A stretch of 64,000 nucleotides of DNA from Natronorubrum thiooxidans (GTDB lineage: Archaea > Halobacteriota > Halobacteria > Halobacteriales > Natrialbaceae). Positions within the stretch are counted from its first letter, which is position 1, and every line of letters starts with the position of its first letter. Made by a program: the position numbers and the translations under genes. Where the stretch lies: NCBI RefSeq assembly GCF_900156475.1, contig NZ_FTNR01000011.1, positions 1-64,000 on the forward strand. Direction: 5' to 3'. The notes under the pieces are model-generated. The model was not told the origin of the DNA. It ran no database searches and saw only the letters and a program-made list of their open reading frames with translations. This document shows, in pieces, positions 2,692 through 12,366 of the stretch.

Positions 2692-3828
2692 TCACTCGAC
2701 CGGCTCGGCCTCGGGGAACTGGTAGCTCCCGTCGAGAATCTCCTCGCGCGGCTGGTAGAGCCGAACCGTGTAGGTCCATCCCTCTGGTGTATAGAGGAAG
2801 TTCGGCTGGTCGGGGTCACCACCGAAATGGATCGTGACACTGCCGTCGTCGGCTGGCTCTGCGGTCGCGTTACTCACAGTATAGGCATCGTACTCGTTCT
2901 CCTCGAAGTAGAAGTCGCTGTTGTAGACGCTGACCGACCAGAACCCGTCGACGGGGACGTCCTCGACGGTGAGTGTGTGTGGCGTCGTGCCGTCATTCTG
3001 GGCGGGAGTCCGTTGAAGAGCCAACGCTTCCGACGGCTCCGGAACACCGGTCCACCCTGCCGTACTGGCGATGAAATGCTTCACGGGGTCGACCTCATCG
3101 ACGTCGCCATACGCGCCCGAGTAGTCGTCAACTGTGAGTCCGACCGGTACGAGCGCGTCGTTGAGTTGTTCGTATGATTGCTGATCCCAGTTAGGGATCT
3201 CGAACGAGCCAGCCGACGATTGCTCCGCCTCGGTCTCGTCCTGGAGTTGCCGGACTTGGTCTAGATCGTCTGGATCGGTCGGGTCGACGAACGCGCGAAT
3301 CACGACGCCAGCATACCGGGTGCCGACGAGGTCCTGGGTTATCGTGTACTCGCCGGGGTCGGTGGCGAACATCTTCACGTATTGGTTCTCGTTCTGGACG
3401 TTCATCGACCGGTATCGGTCACCGCTGTCTGGGAGCGTGATGGTGACCGGCTCGGTTAGATCGAAGACCCCGAACGAGCCGAGCACGTCCCGGTCCTCCC
3501 CGACATAGACCTGATCCTCGATGGGGGAGACATCTCTGCGATGGTAGAATTGTCCGAACCCGCCCGCGTCGACGGTTGACTGGAACACGACATGACAGTT
3601 GGCGCGCGGGTAGTTCTCCCACGTCACTGGGACCGACTCGCCGTCTGCTGCCGTCTCGTTTTCAGCCCCCTGGGTGTTCGCCTCCGAGGCATGTTGGCCG
3701 GCAGTGGCGCTGCCACTGCCCAGTGCGAGCAGTCCGGCGAGGCCCGCCCCGCGAAGTGCATTTCGGCGCGTCGCCCACAGCAGTTCGGAACTGGAATCTG
3801 ACGTCGTGTGATCTGTTTCGTTGCTCAT
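2692..3828 (-). CDS. Tat-exported DUF1254/DUF1214 protein, copy 1
   Basis: A 378-residue protein. Residues 1-43 form a Tat signal: Arg21-Arg22 (RRNALRG), a short hydrophobic stretch, and a SATA signal-peptidase site. After an acidic linker, residues ~70-180 match DUF1254 (VFDLTEPVTITLPDSGDRYR). The C-terminal ~110 residues match DUF1214 (VPVDGFWSVSVYNSD, then HFGGDPDQPNFLYTPEGW). The molecular role of these extracytoplasmic domains is unknown. It is one of three paralogues here (also 4192-5322 and 11215-12366) sharing promoter, leader and body. GGAGAGGT lies about 7 bases before the ATG. Confidence 0.88.
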   Translation of the reverse strand: MSNETDHTTSDSSSELLWATRRNALRGAGLAGLLALGSGSATAGQHASEANTQGAENETAADGESVPVTWENYPRANCHVVFQSTVDAGGFGQFYHRRDVSPIEDQVYVGEDRDVLGSFGVFDLTEPVTITLPDSGDRYRSMNVQNENQYVKMFATDPGEYTITQDLVGTRYAGVVIRAFVDPTDPDDLDQVRQLQDETEAEQSSAGSFEIPNWDQQSYEQLNDALVPVGLTVDDYSGAYGDVDEVDPVKHFIASTAGWTGVPEPSEALALQRTPAQNDGTTPHTLTVEDVPVDGFWSVSVYNSDFYFEENEYDAYTVSNATAEPADDGSVTIHFGGDPDQPNFLYTPEGWTYTVRLYQPREEILDGSYQFPEAEPVE

Positions 3829-4191: not shown

Positions 4192-5322
4192 TCACTCGAT
4201 CGGCTCGGCCTCGGGGAACTGATAGCTCCCGTCGAGAATCTCCTCGCGGGGCCCGTAGAGCCGAACCAGGTAGAACCACTCCGCTGGGGTGTAGAGGAAG
4301 TTCGGTTGATCGGGGTCACCGCCGAAATGGATCGTGATAGTGCCGTCATCGGCTGACTCTGCAGTTACGTTGTTGAACGAGTACGCGTCGTACTCGTTCT
4401 CCTCGAGAAACCCGTCGCTGTTGTAGACGGTGACCGACCAGAATCCGTCGACGGGGACGTCCTGGACAGTGAACGTGTGTGGCGTGTTACCGTCGTTCTG
4501 TTCTGGGACTCGTTGCAGATAGATCGTTTCTGGCTCCGGAACGCCGCCCGGTGTCACAGTGGCAAGATAGTACTTGACGGGGTCGATCTCGTCGACGTCG
4601 CCATAAGCACCGCTGAAGTCGTCCATCGTTTTCATGACTGTGACGAGCGCGTCGAAGAGTTCTTGATGTGTCTGGCGGTCCCAATCGGGAATATCGAACG
4701 TACCGACCGAGTCTTGGCTCACTGCGAGTTCGTCCTGTAGTCCATAGACGGTCTCTACGTCGTCCGGATCGTTCGGGTCGACGAACGTGCGGACGATGAC
4801 CCACACGTACCGCGTCCCGACCCCGTCCCGGGTCAATGTGTACTCGCCGGGATCCTGATACGCCTCTTTCACGTACGCGTCCTCGTCCATGACGACCATC
4901 GACTGGTGGCGGTCACCGGCGTCCGGTTTGGTAATGGTGACCGGCTCGGACAGGTCGAAGACGCCGATCGAATAGATCGTGTCGCGATTGGGCAAGGCTG
5001 CGATCCGCACGTCAGGCCCGACTACCGTTCGGAAATGGTGGAATTCGCCGAACCCGCCTCGTTCGACGATGTTCTCCATCATTAGATGGATCTGTGACCG
5101 GGGAAAATTCTCCCAGGTCACTGGGACTGACTCGTCGGGCGCTGCCATCTCATTTTCAGTCCCCTGGGTGTTCCCTTCCGAAGAGTTTTGGCTGGCAGTG
5201 GCGCTGCCACCGCCCAGTGCGAGCAGTCCGGCGAGGCCCGCCCCGCGAAGTGCGGTTCGGCGCGTTGCCCGCAGGAGTTCGGAATTAGATTCTGGCGTCG
5301 TGTGATTTGTCTCGTTGCTCAT
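4192..5322 (-). CDS. Tat-exported DUF1254/DUF1214 protein, copy 2
   Basis: A 376-residue paralogue of the neighbour ending at 2692, same order: Tat signal (Arg21-Arg22, RRTALRG, ending SATA), acidic linker, DUF1254 (ALPNRDTIYSIGVFDLSEPV) and DUF1214 (VPVDGFWSVTVYNSDGFLEE). The NRDTIYS element is more canonical than in copy 1. The last ~50 residues are nearly the same as in the other copies, while the middle has diverged. That suggests duplication followed by drift, possibly with gene conversion at both ends. The product is predicted to fold in the cytoplasm and be exported by Tat. Function unknown. Confidence 0.88.
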   Translation of the reverse strand: MSNETNHTTPESNSELLRATRRTALRGAGLAGLLALGGGSATASQNSSEGNTQGTENEMAAPDESVPVTWENFPRSQIHLMMENIVERGGFGEFHHFRTVVGPDVRIAALPNRDTIYSIGVFDLSEPVTITKPDAGDRHQSMVVMDEDAYVKEAYQDPGEYTLTRDGVGTRYVWVIVRTFVDPNDPDDVETVYGLQDELAVSQDSVGTFDIPDWDRQTHQELFDALVTVMKTMDDFSGAYGDVDEIDPVKYYLATVTPGGVPEPETIYLQRVPEQNDGNTPHTFTVQDVPVDGFWSVTVYNSDGFLEENEYDAYSFNNVTAESADDGTITIHFGGDPDQPNFLYTPAEWFYLVRLYGPREEILDGSYQFPEAEPIE

Positions 5323-5597: not shown

Positions 5598-7175
5598 TCA
5601 GTCGTCGCCGCGCGCGGCTTCGAACGCCTCGATTGCGCGCTCGTGGTGTTCGCCGTAGTCGACGATGGGGGCGGGGTAATCGGGCGCGATGGCGGCTCGT
5701 TTCTCGTCGTCCAGCGTGGGCCACTCGTGGATGGCGTCGGTCGGCGCGTCCCGGAGTTCGGGGACGTGTTCCCTGACGTACTCGCCGTCCGGATCGTACT
5801 CCTCCGACTGGGTTACGGGGTCGAAGAAGCGGACGTACGGCTGGGCGTTCGCTCCCGTCGAGGCGGCCCACTGCCAGCCGCCGGCGGCGTGGGCGGTGTC
5901 GTGGTCCACGAGCTTTCGGCGGTACCAGTCGTACCCCTCGCGCCAGTCAATCAGCAGGTCCTTCGTGAGGAACGAGGCGGCCACCATCCGGACGCGGTTG
6001 TGAACCCACGCCTCGGCGCGCAACTGCCGCATCCCGGCGTCGACGAGCGGATAGCCCGTCTCGCCGTCCTTCCACGCCCGGAGACCCTCGGGATCGTCGC
6101 GCCACTGGATTTCGTTCGGGTACTCGCGGTAGTTCTCGGTAACGACGTCGGGACGCGCGTCCAGGACGTGCGCGTAGAACTCCCGCCAGGCGAGCCGTCG
6201 CCGGAACGCCTCGACCGACTCTCGGGCGTCTCCGTCGCTGGCGGCGGCCGCCGCGTCTTCAGTTGCTTTCCAGACCGTTCGGACGCCGACTGTCCCGAAC
6301 TTCAGGTGCGGCGAGAGGCGCGAGGTCGACTCTCGGGCGGGGTACTCGCGGTCGTCCCCGTAGCGGTAGATAGTGTCCTCGCGGAAGTCGGCGAGTAGGT
6401 CGTGGGCGGCGTCGGTGCCCGCTGGCTGCACGTCGGCTTCGGGATCGTCGAAGCCCAGCTCGGCGAGTGACGGTAGCGTGCCGGCGGTCTCGGAGGCCTC
6501 GCCGAGCCACTCCTCGTCGAGGCTGTCGCGTGGGTCGACGACGTCACCGCGAACCGGCGCGGCGACGGGGGCGGCCTTCTCCCGGTCGCGCCACTCCCGC
6601 CAGAAGTCCGAGAAGACAGAGTGGTGGCTCCCGTCGGCCGTCGTGATGGTCTCCGGTTTGTGGAGGAGGGTGCCGCCGAACCGCTCGACGTCGACGCTGA
6701 CGCCAGCGTCGGCGAGCGCCGCCGCGACCGCACGGTCGCGTTCGCCCGCCAGTCCGGAGTAGTCGCGGTTCCAGGTGACCGCATCGGCGTCGCAGGCCTC
6801 AGCGAGGTCGGGAAGTACCGTCCTCGGGTCGCCGCGGGCGAGGAGCAGTTCGCCGCCGCGCTCGCGGTACTGCTCGCGCAACGAGTCCAGCGCACCGAGC
6901 AGGAACGATACCACGGGCGGCGCGCCGTAGGCGAGTATCGCGGGATCGTGGACGAACACTGGGAGGAGGCGGTCGTCGCCCGCCAGCGCCGGGTTGTCGG
7001 TCACACGAAGATCACGGCGGTGCCAGTGAAGTCGCACACCGGAGTCTTGGCGGGCACTGGCGCCGCCCATCGCGAGCATTCCGGCGAGGCCCGCCCCACG
7101 AAGTGCGTTTCGGCGTGTCGCCCGCAGCGGTTCAAAGTCCGATTCTGACGTCGCGTGGTATGGCTCTTCGCTCAT
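5598..7175 (-). CDS. phr: Photolyase/cryptochrome-family protein fused to a Tat signal
   Basis: A 525-residue reading frame. Residues 1-46 are a Tat leader of the same family as the DUF1254 paralogues (RRNALRGAGLAGMLAMGG at 21-38, then AxA at 39-41). From Val47 (RLHWHRRDLRVTDN) it is a full class I photolyase: antenna domain, then the FAD domain. The tryptophan chain is intact (Trp358, Trp411, Trp434, matching E. coli 306, 359, 382). The Asn378 position next to flavin N5 is Ala430 (AHAAGGWQW). Class I photolyases repair cyclobutane dimers with blue light in the cytoplasm; export would be unprecedented. GTG at 7037 could start an unfused protein, but no ribosome-binding site precedes it, whereas 7175 has the cassette promoter and gagagg. 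Confidence 0.9.
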   Translation of the reverse strand: MSEEPYHATSESDFEPLRATRRNALRGAGLAGMLAMGGASARQDSGVRLHWHRRDLRVTDNPALAGDDRLLPVFVHDPAILAYGAPPVVSFLLGALDSLREQYRERGGELLLARGDPRTVLPDLAEACDADAVTWNRDYSGLAGERDRAVAAALADAGVSVDVERFGGTLLHKPETITTADGSHHSVFSDFWREWRDREKAAPVAAPVRGDVVDPRDSLDEEWLGEASETAGTLPSLAELGFDDPEADVQPAGTDAAHDLLADFREDTIYRYGDDREYPARESTSRLSPHLKFGTVGVRTVWKATEDAAAAASDGDARESVEAFRRRLAWREFYAHVLDARPDVVTENYREYPNEIQWRDDPEGLRAWKDGETGYPLVDAGMRQLRAEAWVHNRVRMVAASFLTKDLLIDWREGYDWYRRKLVDHDTAHAAGGWQWAASTGANAQPYVRFFDPVTQSEEYDPDGEYVREHVPELRDAPTDAIHEWPTLDDEKRAAIAPDYPAPIVDYGEHHERAIEAFEAARGDD

Positions 7176-7376
7176 GACTCATGCCTCTCTGAGTGGTCCA
7201 CAGCAGCAGTTGCGACCGACTCACACACTCGCACTTCAGGATTCCATATAATACAGTGACGATACTCGAGAAGAAACTCGTGACATGATGATAGTGATAG
7301 ACGGCACTAAATTCTTGATCGGCTATCTGTACGTGTAGCGAGCGATGACGGACTTCAGTTCGTGTTGTACTCGCGC
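7037..7376 (-). repeat. Promoter + 5'UTR + Tat-leader cassette, copy 3 (drives phr)
   Basis: The cassette found before the three DUF1254 genes here precedes the photolyase body. The TATA element is attatatgg (7244-7252, minus strand), about 70 bases before the ATG at 7175. The cccacagcag block is changed by one base (tccacagcag). The upstream end cagttcgtgttgtactcgcg is at about 7357-7376. Homology to the DUF1254 genes ends within the leader, a few codons before Val47 of the photolyase. Confidence 0.88.
7244..7252 (-). promoter_or_regulatory. TATA box in the photolyase cassette
   Basis: attatatgg on the minus strand; predicts transcription from about 7221, giving a ~46-base 5'UTR before ATG 7175. 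Identical in place to the DUF1254 promoters. Confidence 0.55.
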
Positions 7377-9445: not shown

Positions 9446-11170
9446 TCACTCCGTTCTCCAGCGGTCGATGACGTCATCGATTGATTCCTCGGGCTTCATG
9501 CCGCCGACGTTCGCCGCAAGTCCCGTCGTTTCGAACATCTGTACAACCTCGGACTCCGCCCCCGCAAAACGGAGATCGATTCCGCGTGAGTCGAGTTTTT
9601 CCTCGAGTTTCTCCAGCATCTGTGCGGCCCCGAAATCGACTGTTGATGACGATGTGAGGTCGAACACGACTAATTCGACATCGGAATCACGTTTTTCGAT
9701 CCGGTTGAGGAGGTCGGTCTGAACCGTATCTGCGTTCGCGTAGAACAACTCGGCTTCGACGCGGTAGACGAATACATCGGTGATAGTCGTTGCCGCAGGA
9801 TACAAGTCGTGAGCGACGAAGTGTCCCCTCCCGTCGATTTGACCGAGTTCATGTGTCACTGGACGGCTGACCCGAGAAATCGCGATCAGCAACGAGAGGG
9901 CGACGCCGACGAAGACGCCCCAGAGCATCCCGACTGTGAGTACCCCGAGTAAGGCCGACATCGCGATGGCAAATTCGCTCTTGCTCACGTGGTACAGTTG
10001 GCGGAGTGCGTTCGTATCGATAAGGCCCGTAACGGCGACGATAACGATTGCTGCGAGAATCGTTTCTGGGAGATTGGTAAACATCTCGGTGAGAAAGAGC
10101 AAGACGACGACGAGAACGAGAGCGACAACGGCGTTCGTGAGTTGTGTCTTGCTGCCGACGGCGTCATTGAGCGCTGACCGAGACATACTCCCACCGACGA
10201 CAAATCCGCCACCGAAGCCAGCAGCGAGGTTGGCACCGCCATCAGCCAACAGTTCCTGATTCGCATCGGTTCGGTAGTCATGGCGTCTGGCGAACGTCTC
10301 GACGGCGCTGATGCCTTCGACGTACGAAAGAAGAAACAACGCCGCGGCGACGGGGACGAGGGAACCCAGCGTCGAGATACTGGGAACGGTCGGTACCGTC
10401 AGCGACGGGAGACCGCTCGGAATCGATCCAACGATCGCGACGCCGCGTGCCTGTAGATTCGTGACCGACAGTAGCACGATCGAGAGGGCTACGACGATGA
10501 TTGCACTCGGCACACGCGGGAAGTAACGTTCTCCGAGCACGAGCAACCCGATTCCGGCGACACCAACGGCCAGCGTCTCGGGGTTCGTCTCAGCGAGATG
10601 GGTTCCGGCGTACCACACTCGTCCAAAGAACGTTTCCCCGAAGAAGCCGCCCGACGCGCCACTCTCAATGCCGAACAGTTTGTTTAGTTGGGTAGACATT
10701 ATGTATAGCGCCGCCCCGGCGGAAAACCCCGTCAGTACCGACCCTGAGATAAAGTGGACGAGAAACCCCAACCGAAACGCCCACGCAACGACCGCGAAGA
10801 CACCGACGAGGATCGTCGTCACGACGACGAGCGACGCGTACGAGGCGCTGTTTCCGCCAGCGACTGCTCCGACACCGCTCGCGAGCAGAATCGCCAGCGC
10901 CGAGGTGGGTCCCACCATGACTTGCCGAGAGGTGCCAAGAAAGAGGTACGCGATTGCAGCCAGTAACCCGGCGTACAAGCCAGTCTCTGGCGGCAAGTTT
11001 GCAAGCGATGCGTACGCTAAACCTTCGGGAATGACCGCCGCCGCGACGGTGATTCCCGCGACGACGTCCAAACGGAGCCACGACGCGTCGTACCGCGGAA
11101 GCCACTCCAGTATCGGGAGAGTAGACGAAAACCGTCGGCCGATTCGCTCTTTCAGGTTCTTCTCTGACAC
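9446..11170 (-). CDS. SulP-family anion transporter with STAS domain
   Basis: A protein of 574 residues. Residues ~20-420 give 12-14 hydrophobic segments with the SulP signature region near the N terminus (AGITVAAAVIPEGLAYASLA). The C-terminal ~110 residues are a STAS domain (VELVVFDLTSSSTVDFGAAQ). SulP proteins carry sulfate, bicarbonate or other oxyanions. The frame is open to a GTG at 11218 that overlaps the upstream stop, but GGAG lies 7 bases before the GTG at 11170 and the protein there begins VSEKNLKERIGRR, so 11170 is preferred. It follows a DUF1254 gene by about 45 bases and may be cotranscribed with it. Confidence 0.88.
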   Translation of the reverse strand: MSEKNLKERIGRRFSSTLPILEWLPRYDASWLRLDVVAGITVAAAVIPEGLAYASLANLPPETGLYAGLLAAIAYLFLGTSRQVMVGPTSALAILLASGVGAVAGGNSASYASLVVVTTILVGVFAVVAWAFRLGFLVHFISGSVLTGFSAGAALYIMSTQLNKLFGIESGASGGFFGETFFGRVWYAGTHLAETNPETLAVGVAGIGLLVLGERYFPRVPSAIIVVALSIVLLSVTNLQARGVAIVGSIPSGLPSLTVPTVPSISTLGSLVPVAAALFLLSYVEGISAVETFARRHDYRTDANQELLADGGANLAAGFGGGFVVGGSMSRSALNDAVGSKTQLTNAVVALVLVVVLLFLTEMFTNLPETILAAIVIVAVTGLIDTNALRQLYHVSKSEFAIAMSALLGVLTVGMLWGVFVGVALSLLIAISRVSRPVTHELGQIDGRGHFVAHDLYPAATTITDVFVYRVEAELFYANADTVQTDLLNRIEKRDSDVELVVFDLTSSSTVDFGAAQMLEKLEEKLDSRGIDLRFAGAESEVVQMFETTGLAANVGGMKPEESIDDVIDRWRTE

Positions 11171-11214
11171 TATAGTTCTCCTTGTGGGTGCGGTAATTCC
11201 CGTCGCTTGTGATT

Positions 11215-12366
11215 TCACTCGAGCGGCTCGGCTTCGGGGAACTGATAGCTCCCGTCGAGAACCTCCTCACGTGGTCGGTAGAGCCGAACGATATAGCGCC
11301 AGCCCTCCGGGGTGTAGAGGAAGTTCGGTTGATCGGGGTCACCGCCGAGGTGCACCGTGACACTCCCGTCGTCGGCCCTCTCTGCGGTCACGTCGTTGAT
11401 CGAGTACGCATCGTACTCGTTCTCCTCGAGCAACCAGTCGCTGTTGTAGACGGTGACCGACCAGAATGCGTCGACGGGGACGGTGTCCGGCTCCTCGACG
11501 GTGAGTGTGTATGGTGTTTCGCCGTCGTTTTGTTCGGGGTACCGCATTACAAGTAACGACTCTGATTCAGGAAGTCCACCCGGGCCGAACGCTGCAGTAC
11601 CGAGGTAAAACTTGACGGGGTCGACCTCGTCGACGTCGCCATAGACGCCTCCTAAGTCGTCCATCGTCTCTCCGACCGTGATGAGCGCCTCCTGAATTTC
11701 TTCCAACGATTCTCGATCCCAGTTGGGAATCTCGAACGTTCCAGACGATTGTTGACGTATCGTCGTTTCATCCTGTAGTCTATGAGCTTCGTTCACATCG
11801 GCCGGATCGTTCAGGTCGACAAACGTGCGCATGAGGGCGCTGACGTACTGCGTTCCGATCTCATCCTGTGTCAACGTGTACTCGCCGGGATCGGAGAGAA
11901 CCCCTTTCACGTATTGGTCTTGGTTGGTAAGAACTATCGACTGGTACCGGTCACCGGTGTCCGGTTTCGTGATGGTCACCGGCTCGGCCAGGTCGAATAT
12001 TCCCCACGAGTAAAGCACCTCGTGATTCGGTGCCTTGGGTTGGTTGACCTGCTCCTCGATGGGAGGGATATCTCGGTAGTGCTTGAACTCGCCGAACCCA
12101 CCGATTTCGACATGTGATTCGAAGTAGTCATCCGCCTGGGCGCGGAGGAAGTTCTCCCACGTCACTGGGAGTGGCTCGTCATCCGCTGACGTCTCGGTTT
12201 CAGCCCCCTGGGTGTCCGTCTCCGAGGGGTTTTGGCTGGCAGTGGCACTGCCACCACCCAGCGCGAGCAGTCCGGCGAGGCCCGCCCCGCGAAGTGCATT
12301 TCGGCGCGTTGCCCGCAGCGGTCTGAAGTTCGATTTTGCCGTCTTGTGGTGTGGTTCGTTGCTCAT
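11215..12366 (-). CDS. Tat-exported DUF1254/DUF1214 protein, copy 3
   Basis: A 383-residue paralogue of the genes at 2692 and 4192, with the same plan: Tat signal with Arg21-Arg22 (RRNALRG), SATA cleavage site, DUF1254 (SWGIFDLAEPVTITKPDTGD) and DUF1214 (VPVDAFWSVTVYNSDWLLEE). It is about 3 kb from the other copies, with phr, an MFS gene and a SulP gene between, so the array was probably broken up. Promoter and leader belong to the shared cassette. It is directly upstream of the SulP gene. Function unknown. Confidence 0.88.
   Translation of the reverse strand: MSNEPHHKTAKSNFRPLRATRRNALRGAGLAGLLALGGGSATASQNPSETDTQGAETETSADDEPLPVTWENFLRAQADDYFESHVEIGGFGEFKHYRDIPPIEEQVNQPKAPNHEVLYSWGIFDLAEPVTITKPDTGDRYQSIVLTNQDQYVKGVLSDPGEYTLTQDEIGTQYVSALMRTFVDLNDPADVNEAHRLQDETTIRQQSSGTFEIPNWDRESLEEIQEALITVGETMDDLGGVYGDVDEVDPVKFYLGTAAFGPGGLPESESLLVMRYPEQNDGETPYTLTVEEPDTVPVDAFWSVTVYNSDWLLEENEYDAYSINDVTAERADDGSVTVHLGGDPDQPNFLYTPEGWRYIVRLYRPREEVLDGSYQFPEAEPLE

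What the first reader, a model, noticed from the sequence alone, without database searches (positions are those of the whole stretch)
5598..7376. Photolyase fused in frame to a Tat export signal and promoter taken from a DUF1254 paralogue
Seen: the ORF at 5598-7175 opens with the leader of the three DUF1254 proteins (RRNALRGAGLAG at residues 21-32, AxA at 39-41), then is photolyase from Val47, where an ordinary photolyase would begin. The ~200 bases before the ATG are also shared with those genes. Established: photolyases act on DNA in the cytoplasm, and Tat exports folded, cofactor-loaded proteins. Inference: recombination joined a foreign promoter-leader cassette to phr, either giving a flavoprotein a new place of work (envelope or extracellular DNA, light sensing) or an inert leader kept for its promoter.
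Basis: partly seen in the sequence, partly recalled or inferred. Interest (0 to 1): 0.88.

Follow-up and report, generated by a model that had tools for sequence, protein, structure and literature searches.

The report
Exported, altered photolyase in haloarchaea
In a family of salt-loving archaea, a light-activated DNA-repair enzyme was joined once to an export tag borrowed from unrelated secreted proteins, was kept that way in at least 14 species, and has lost residues that the repair reaction uses, so it probably now does another light- or redox-linked job outside the cell.

Summary
ORF 5598-7175(-) is a 525-aa fusion: a 46-residue DUF1254-type Tat leader, then photolyase from residue 47, with ~200 bp of shared upstream DNA. 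It is not strain-specific. The same fusion occurs in 14 species of 7 genera of one haloarchaeal family, as one clade (support 1.0). Unfused haloarchaeal relatives start at the residue equivalent to codon 47.

The GTG-47 internal start offered as refutation is not conserved: codon 47 is GCG, GTA, ATA or CTG in other species. The Tat core (19-41) is constrained (omega ~0.21; no amino-acid change at RR); the n-region and the linker after the AxA are not, as expected of a cleaved signal. The cassette also heads HAD hydrolases and long DUF1254 proteins; the long ones have a second Tat signal, and there the leader's motif decays.

New: the fused clade alone carries changes at the antenna Arg (R to V), the dimer-contact residue (Q to R) and the FAD-N5 residue (D to A). 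Haloterrigena salifodinae BOL5-1 Phr, described in 2023 as a photolyase weakened by subsurface life, has this clade's residue signature.

Best reading: a Tat-exported flavoprotein that no longer repairs DNA. Export and function are inferred, not shown.

The parts
5598..7175 (-). leader-photolyase fusion gene, 525 aa, ATG start at 7175
7038..7175 (-). 46-residue DUF1254-type Tat leader: n-region 1-18, RRxALRG 21-27, h-region to 38, A-S-A 39-41, linker 42-46
5598..7037 (-). photolyase-fold body (DNA_photolyase + FAD_binding_7) with clade-specific V88, R327, H429, A430
7176..7376 (-). upstream/promoter part of the shared cassette, with TATTATATGG-like box about 70-80 bases before the ATG
2692..3828 (-). 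DUF1254/DUF1214 protein with the same leader
4192..5322 (-). DUF1254/DUF1214 protein with the same leader
11215..12366 (-). DUF1254/DUF1214 protein with the same leader; closest leader to phr in this genome
9446..11218 (-). SulP sulfate-permease-family gene, directly behind the DUF1254 gene; also near fused phr in L179, L192, L194

Best explanation
A promoter-leader cassette of the exported DUF1254 family recombined once onto a photolyase gene in an ancestor of this haloarchaeal group (shown by sequence and tree). The product is exported folded, with FAD, through the Tat pathway and cut after A39-S-A41 (inferred from leader anatomy and constraint). Freed from genomic repair, which an unfused paralogue can cover in 12 of 14 genomes, the body was remodelled: it lost the antenna-contact Arg, the FAD-N5 Asp/Asn, the Gln/Glu that contacts the dimer and several DNA-contact residues, while the rest of the FAD pocket and the Trp electron-transfer chain stayed invariant (shown). 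It therefore most likely works at the cell surface or in the medium as a light- or redox-active flavoprotein, not as a DNA photolyase (inferred).
For: Fusion in 14 species, 7 genera, one clade, support 1.0. Codon 47 is GTG6, CTG2, ATG2, ATA2, GTA1, GCG1, so an internal start there is not general; the first Met inside the window's body is residue 382. Parsimony N/S: n-region 57/31, core 19-41 13/27 (omega ~0.21, p 1.4e-6 against neutrality), RR 0/6, linker 11/2, body 348/440. No charged residue at 27-37 in any phr leader; hydropathy near that of DUF1254 leaders. In nine long DUF1254 proteins that carry the same n-region plus a second Tat motif, RRxALRG survives in 4/9 against 14/14 in phr, Fisher p 0.004. 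Three TatC matches in the genome. Changes against 91 unfused haloarchaeal relatives: R to V at window residue 88, Q to R at 327 (13/14), N to H at 429, D to A at 430; DNA-contact Y150 to D/N and D398 to N/H; FAD pocket otherwise and Trp triad kept. PMC10052015 found little or no photoreactivation in H. salifodinae BOL5-1, whose Phr matches the fused-clade signature.
Against: No protein, localisation or activity data. Promoter and n-region are exchanged with DUF1254 genes, so the constraint at RR may partly reflect imported donor sequence; in the phr-specific codons 30-41 alone N/S is 9/7 (summed), not clearly constrained. Two of 14 genomes lack an unfused paralogue at E<=1e-20, so a repair role cannot be excluded there. 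Basal member L182 keeps Gln at the dimer-contact position. h-region hydropathy is slightly below the DUF1254 leaders (1.41 against 1.67).
Confidence: 0.65

Rival explanations
1. The leader is an inert or inefficient by-product: recombination supplied a useful promoter and start region, and the protein stays in the cytoplasm as a photolyase or a decaying one.
For: The promoter and n-region are the most freely exchanged part of the cassette; RR constraint could be imported by exchange with DUF1254 genes; the phr-specific codons 30-41 alone do not show clear constraint.
Against: Core omega 0.21 next to a near-neutral n-region and a free linker; an AxA is present at 39-41 where the DUF1254 site was cut off; RRxALRG decays in the long DUF1254 genes, which draw on the same pool; fixed 46-residue leader length in 14 of 14.
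Confidence: 0.2
2. Exported but still a DNA photolyase, acting on extracellular DNA or DNA at the cell surface (for instance before uptake or in biofilm).
For: W286, N349 and most of the FAD pocket and Trp triad are invariant in the fused clade; body under purifying selection.
Against: Loss of the N5 Asp/Asn, dimer-contact Gln/Glu, antenna Arg and two DNA-contact positions, fixed or nearly so in the clade; repair of extracellular DNA has no obvious selective benefit.
Confidence: 0.1
3. Degenerating photolyase on its way to a pseudogene, as PMC10052015 inferred for BOL5-1 (substitutions linked to a dark habitat).
For: Substitutions at key residues; poor photoreactivation of BOL5-1.
Against: Intact 520-525-aa frames in 14 species, body omega ~0.30 over 788 inferred changes, and the same substitutions fixed throughout the clade, which is the pattern of a conserved new function rather than independent decay.
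Confidence: 0.05

Closest known systems
Haloarchaeal Phr2-type class I CPD photolyases (Halobacterium NRC-1 Phr2 and the 91 unfused relatives)
   Same: roughly 52-68% identity over the body, same two domains, Trp triad, W286, N349, most FAD-pocket residues
   Different: they have no leader; fused clade has V for antenna Arg, R for dimer-contact Gln, A for N5 Asp, D/N for Y150, N/H for D398
Haloterrigena salifodinae BOL5-1 'Phr2' (PMC10052015)
   Same: V50, H144, F148, S149, D150, R282, H384, A385, N398: the fused-clade signature; 13 of 14 compared positions equal L181
   Different: the paper treats it as an impaired orthologue and its text has no hit for 'signal' or 'N-terminal'; whether that gene has the leader was not read here
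Haloarchaeal Tat substrates with signal peptidase I sites (PMC2945643)
   Same: twin arginine, uncharged stretch, AxA, no lipobox; 39-55% of haloarchaeal secreted proteins predicted to use Tat
   Different: cargo is of the photolyase/cryptochrome superfamily; no paper on an exported member was found
Cryptochromes
   Same: photolyase fold, Trp chain kept, repair residues altered
   Different: N5-proximal residue is Ala here, not the Asp or Cys recalled for plant and insect cryptochromes (own knowledge); no long C-terminal extension

Membership tests
Photolyase/cryptochrome superfamily | DNA_photolyase and FAD_binding_7 domains | tested here: met
   Pfam E 3.7e-38 and 2e-76; best solved relative 1owl, E 1.9e-101
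Photolyase/cryptochrome superfamily | Trp electron-transfer triad | tested here: met
   W at all three positions, 14/14
Class I CPD photolyase | Asn (or Asp in haloarchaea) next to FAD N5 | tested here: not met
   Ala in 14/14, Asp in 91/91 unfused relatives
Class I CPD photolyase | Glu/Gln contacting dimer and FAD (A. nidulans E283) | tested here: not met
   Arg in 13/14, Gln in basal L182
Class I CPD photolyase | 8-HDF antenna contact Arg | tested here: not met
   Val in 14/14, Arg in 91/91 relatives; role from PMC10052015
Class I CPD photolyase | light-dependent dimer repair | not testable with these tools
   indirect only: weak photoreactivation of BOL5-1
Tat substrate, signal peptidase I type | twin arginine, uncharged h-region, AxA | tested here: met
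   RR 14/14, no charge at 27-37, A-S-A at 39-41 in 13/14 and T-S-A in one
Tat substrate, signal peptidase I type | Tat translocase in the genome | tested here: met
   three TatC matches on contig C26
Tat substrate, signal peptidase I type | RR-dependent export and cleavage | not testable with these tools
   needs experiment
Cryptochrome | signalling function without repair | not testable with these tools
   needs experiment

The most novel reading that the evidence does not exclude
A clade of the photolyase/cryptochrome superfamily has left the cytoplasm: a Tat-exported flavoprotein that uses the retained Trp chain for light-driven electron transfer or light sensing at the archaeal cell surface, co-regulated with DUF1254/DUF1214 envelope proteins.
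Probability: 0.35. Interest if true: 0.9.

Novelty: new variant of a known kind. Interest (0 to 1): 0.76.

Why it matters
Photolyases and cryptochromes are known as intracellular proteins that act on DNA or in signalling (own knowledge; no exported member was found in the paper library). A conserved exported clade would give the superfamily a new place of work, show how a promoter-signal cassette can retarget an enzyme in one step, and offer a natural experiment in what the fold does without its antenna, N5 and lesion-contact residues. It also cautions a published reading: the 'defective' BOL5-1 photolyase matches a conserved paralogous clade, so poor photoreactivation in that strain should not be put down to subsurface decay of its phr2 without checking for the unfused paralogue.

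Tried and rejected
1) Internal start at GTG 7037: codon 47 is not start-capable in L189 (GCG) or L194 (GTA). 2) Local or assembly artefact: 13 other species carry the fusion. 3) Independent fusions per species: one clade. 4) 5'UTR hairpin (GAGTCGGTCCCA...TGGGCCACTC) as the reason for cassette conservation: consensus energy -2.1 against -2.2 for column shuffles. 5) Amino-acid make-up as evidence of export: Met and Cys are lower in the fused clade (2.1/1.2 against 6.0/2.2) but the sister L012 is intermediate for Met, so only suggestive. 6) AlphaFold model: shallow alignment, mean pLDDT 67; says only that nearly all of residues 1-43 are unstructured (pLDDT<50) and the first strand begins at 47; no fold search was run, as it could only return photolyases. 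7) The first N/S script timed out; one RR-counting pattern was too strict about flanking residues, so RR loss in long DUF1254 proteins is quoted from the sequences themselves (2/9: RW in L148, RQ in L188) and only the RRxALRG test is used. The N/S ratio of codons 19-27 alone does not differ significantly between phr and long DUF1254 (p 0.20). 9) Papers: nothing on DUF1254/DUF1214 or exported photolyases.

Full report
What is there. The window belongs to a 4.2-Mb, 62-contig haloarchaeal assembly. Its genus is probably Natronorubrum, because same-genus genomes G002, G004, G007 and G008 share their photolyase flanks with named Natronorubrum records L045, L047, L034 and L056 (inference). ORF 5598-7175(-) encodes 525 aa: residues 1-46 are the leader of the DUF1254/DUF1214 proteins encoded nearby, and residues 47-525 are a complete class I photolyase body. 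About 200 bp upstream are shared with DUF1254 genes of the window and one on contig C22 at 73-77%.

It is conserved and has one origin. The same fusion is found in 14 species of 7 genera of the family: window, L144, L146, L149, L153, L178, L179, L180, L181, L182, L186, L189, L192, L194. Thirteen are 525 aa; L178, on a 1.6-Mb plasmid of Natrinema gelatinilyticum, is 520 aa. None was found outside the family among some 390 genomes sampled per search. On a tree with 91 unfused haloarchaeal relatives the 14 form one clade with support 1.0, sister to the unfused photolyase of Halomicrococcus. Unfused relatives begin at the residue equivalent to 47.

The leader is translated and behaves like a signal peptide. 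The codon at position 47, which matches the start codon of unfused relatives, is GTG in six species, CTG in two, ATG in two, ATA in two, GTA in one and GCG (Ala) in one, so starting there is not general. Parsimony counts of amino-acid-changing (N) and silent (S) changes are n-region 57/31, Tat core 19-41 13/27 (omega ~0.21, p 1.4e-6 against neutrality), twin arginine 0/6, linker 42-46 11/2, body 348/440 (omega ~0.30). A free n-region, conserved RR and h-region with AxA, and a free linker are what a cleaved signal would show. In DUF1254 leaders the AxA is A41-T-A43; the fusion point removed it, and phr leaders have A39-S-A41 instead, with Gly at 39 in 30/34 DUF1254 leaders and Ala in 13/14 phr leaders. 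Three TatC matches are in the genome. Tat is a major export route in haloarchaea (39-55% of secreted proteins predicted, PMC2945643).

The cassette is shared and still exchanged. It heads short DUF1254 proteins, HAD-type hydrolases, long DUF1254 proteins and the photolyase. A more distant version of the leader heads some ~100-aa proteins. Promoter, 5'UTR and codons 1-18 are about as alike between phr and DUF1254 genes as among phr orthologues (third positions 0.70 and 0.70), while codons 30-41 are phr-specific (third positions 0.93 against 0.72). Exchange could therefore import constraint at RR from DUF1254 donors. A natural control speaks against that as the whole explanation: nine long DUF1254 proteins draw on the same pool but carry a second Tat motif (9/9), and there RRxALRG survives in only 4/9, against 14/14 in phr (Fisher p 0.004), with RR itself lost in two.

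The enzyme changed too. Aligned to A. nidulans photolyase, the fused clade has replacements at positions invariant in the 91 unfused haloarchaeal relatives: antenna Arg51 to Val (14/14), dimer-contact 283 Gln to Arg (13/14), FAD-N5 386 Asp to Ala (14/14), with 385 Asn to His (unfused 89/91 Asn); and DNA-contact Tyr150 to Asp/Asn and Asp398 to Asn/His (numbering of PMC10052015). The Trp triad, W286, N349, R352, D380 and D382 are kept. In E. coli the residue equivalent to 386, Asn378, is reported as crucial for the flavin radical and for repair (Xu et al. 2008, known here only by its title in the references of PMC9178010). Because L182, basal in the protein tree, keeps Gln283 while having Ala386, the N5 change probably came first; the nucleotide tree places L182 elsewhere, so this order is tentative. 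Twelve of the 14 genomes keep an unfused paralogue; G006 and G097 show none at E<=1e-20.

A published case. PMC10052015 measured UV survival of nine haloarchaea and tabulated Phr2 residues. Haloterrigena salifodinae BOL5-1 showed little photoreactivation, and its Phr has V50, H144, D147, F148, S149, D150, R282, H384, A385, N398, T413. Over 14 tabulated positions the fused proteins match it at 11-13 and no unfused relative at more than 6; as a check, N. pallidum DSM 3751 (L053) matches the paper's N. pallidum BOL6-1 at 14/14. The paper reads these as damaging substitutions in a subsurface strain and its text has no hit for 'signal' or 'N-terminal'. Here they are clade-wide features of a conserved leader-bearing paralogue. 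Whether the BOL5-1 gene itself has the leader was not read.

How it most likely works. Shown: fusion, conservation, single origin, constraint pattern, active-site remodelling, shared cassette. Inferred: Tat export of the folded FAD protein, cleavage after residue 41, loss of DNA repair, and a light- or redox-linked role at the cell surface that fits the retained FAD pocket and Trp chain. Co-regulation with DUF1254/DUF1214 proteins is inferred from the shared promoter; their function is unknown. A SulP transporter is near the fused gene in four of the loci, and DUF1254 genes in most of them.

Limits. No expression, localisation or biochemical data exist here. Trees and N/S counts are simple parsimony and FastTree. 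The AlphaFold model rests on 16 sequences. The paper library holds open-licence papers only.

Noticed in passing
L148, L150, L155, L175, L178, L179, L180, L188, L193 (long DUF1254 proteins, ~560 aa): The cassette's promoter, n-region and RR part sit in front of a second, complete Tat motif (LTRREALQRGG), giving tandem Tat signals; the first one decays.
   Followed up: partly
L143:4600(-), L156:5623(-), L175:8430(-), L188:6054(-), reverse-strand offsets: HAD-type hydrolases of 374 aa carry the same leader and promoter as DUF1254 and phr, a further protein family on one cassette.
   Followed up: partly
L142, L160, L161, L162: Small ~100-aa low-complexity proteins carry a more distant version of the same Tat leader.
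   Followed up: no
window 9446-12366: DUF1254 gene and SulP transporter overlap by four bases; a similar pairing is seen in L179 and L194.
   Followed up: partly
G001:C3:220079-221507: A broken photolyase-like gene (34-38% identity pieces, one internal TAA).
   Followed up: no
all 91 unfused haloarchaeal photolyases: Asp at the FAD-N5 position and Gln at the dimer-contact position are universal here, unlike Asn and Glu of typical bacterial photolyases, though at least one such enzyme (NRC-1 Phr2, PMC10052015) is a functional photolyase.
   Followed up: partly
G006 and G097 genomes: No unfused photolyase found at E<=1e-20, so the fused protein is their only detected photolyase-fold protein; useful strains for a photoreactivation test.
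   Followed up: no
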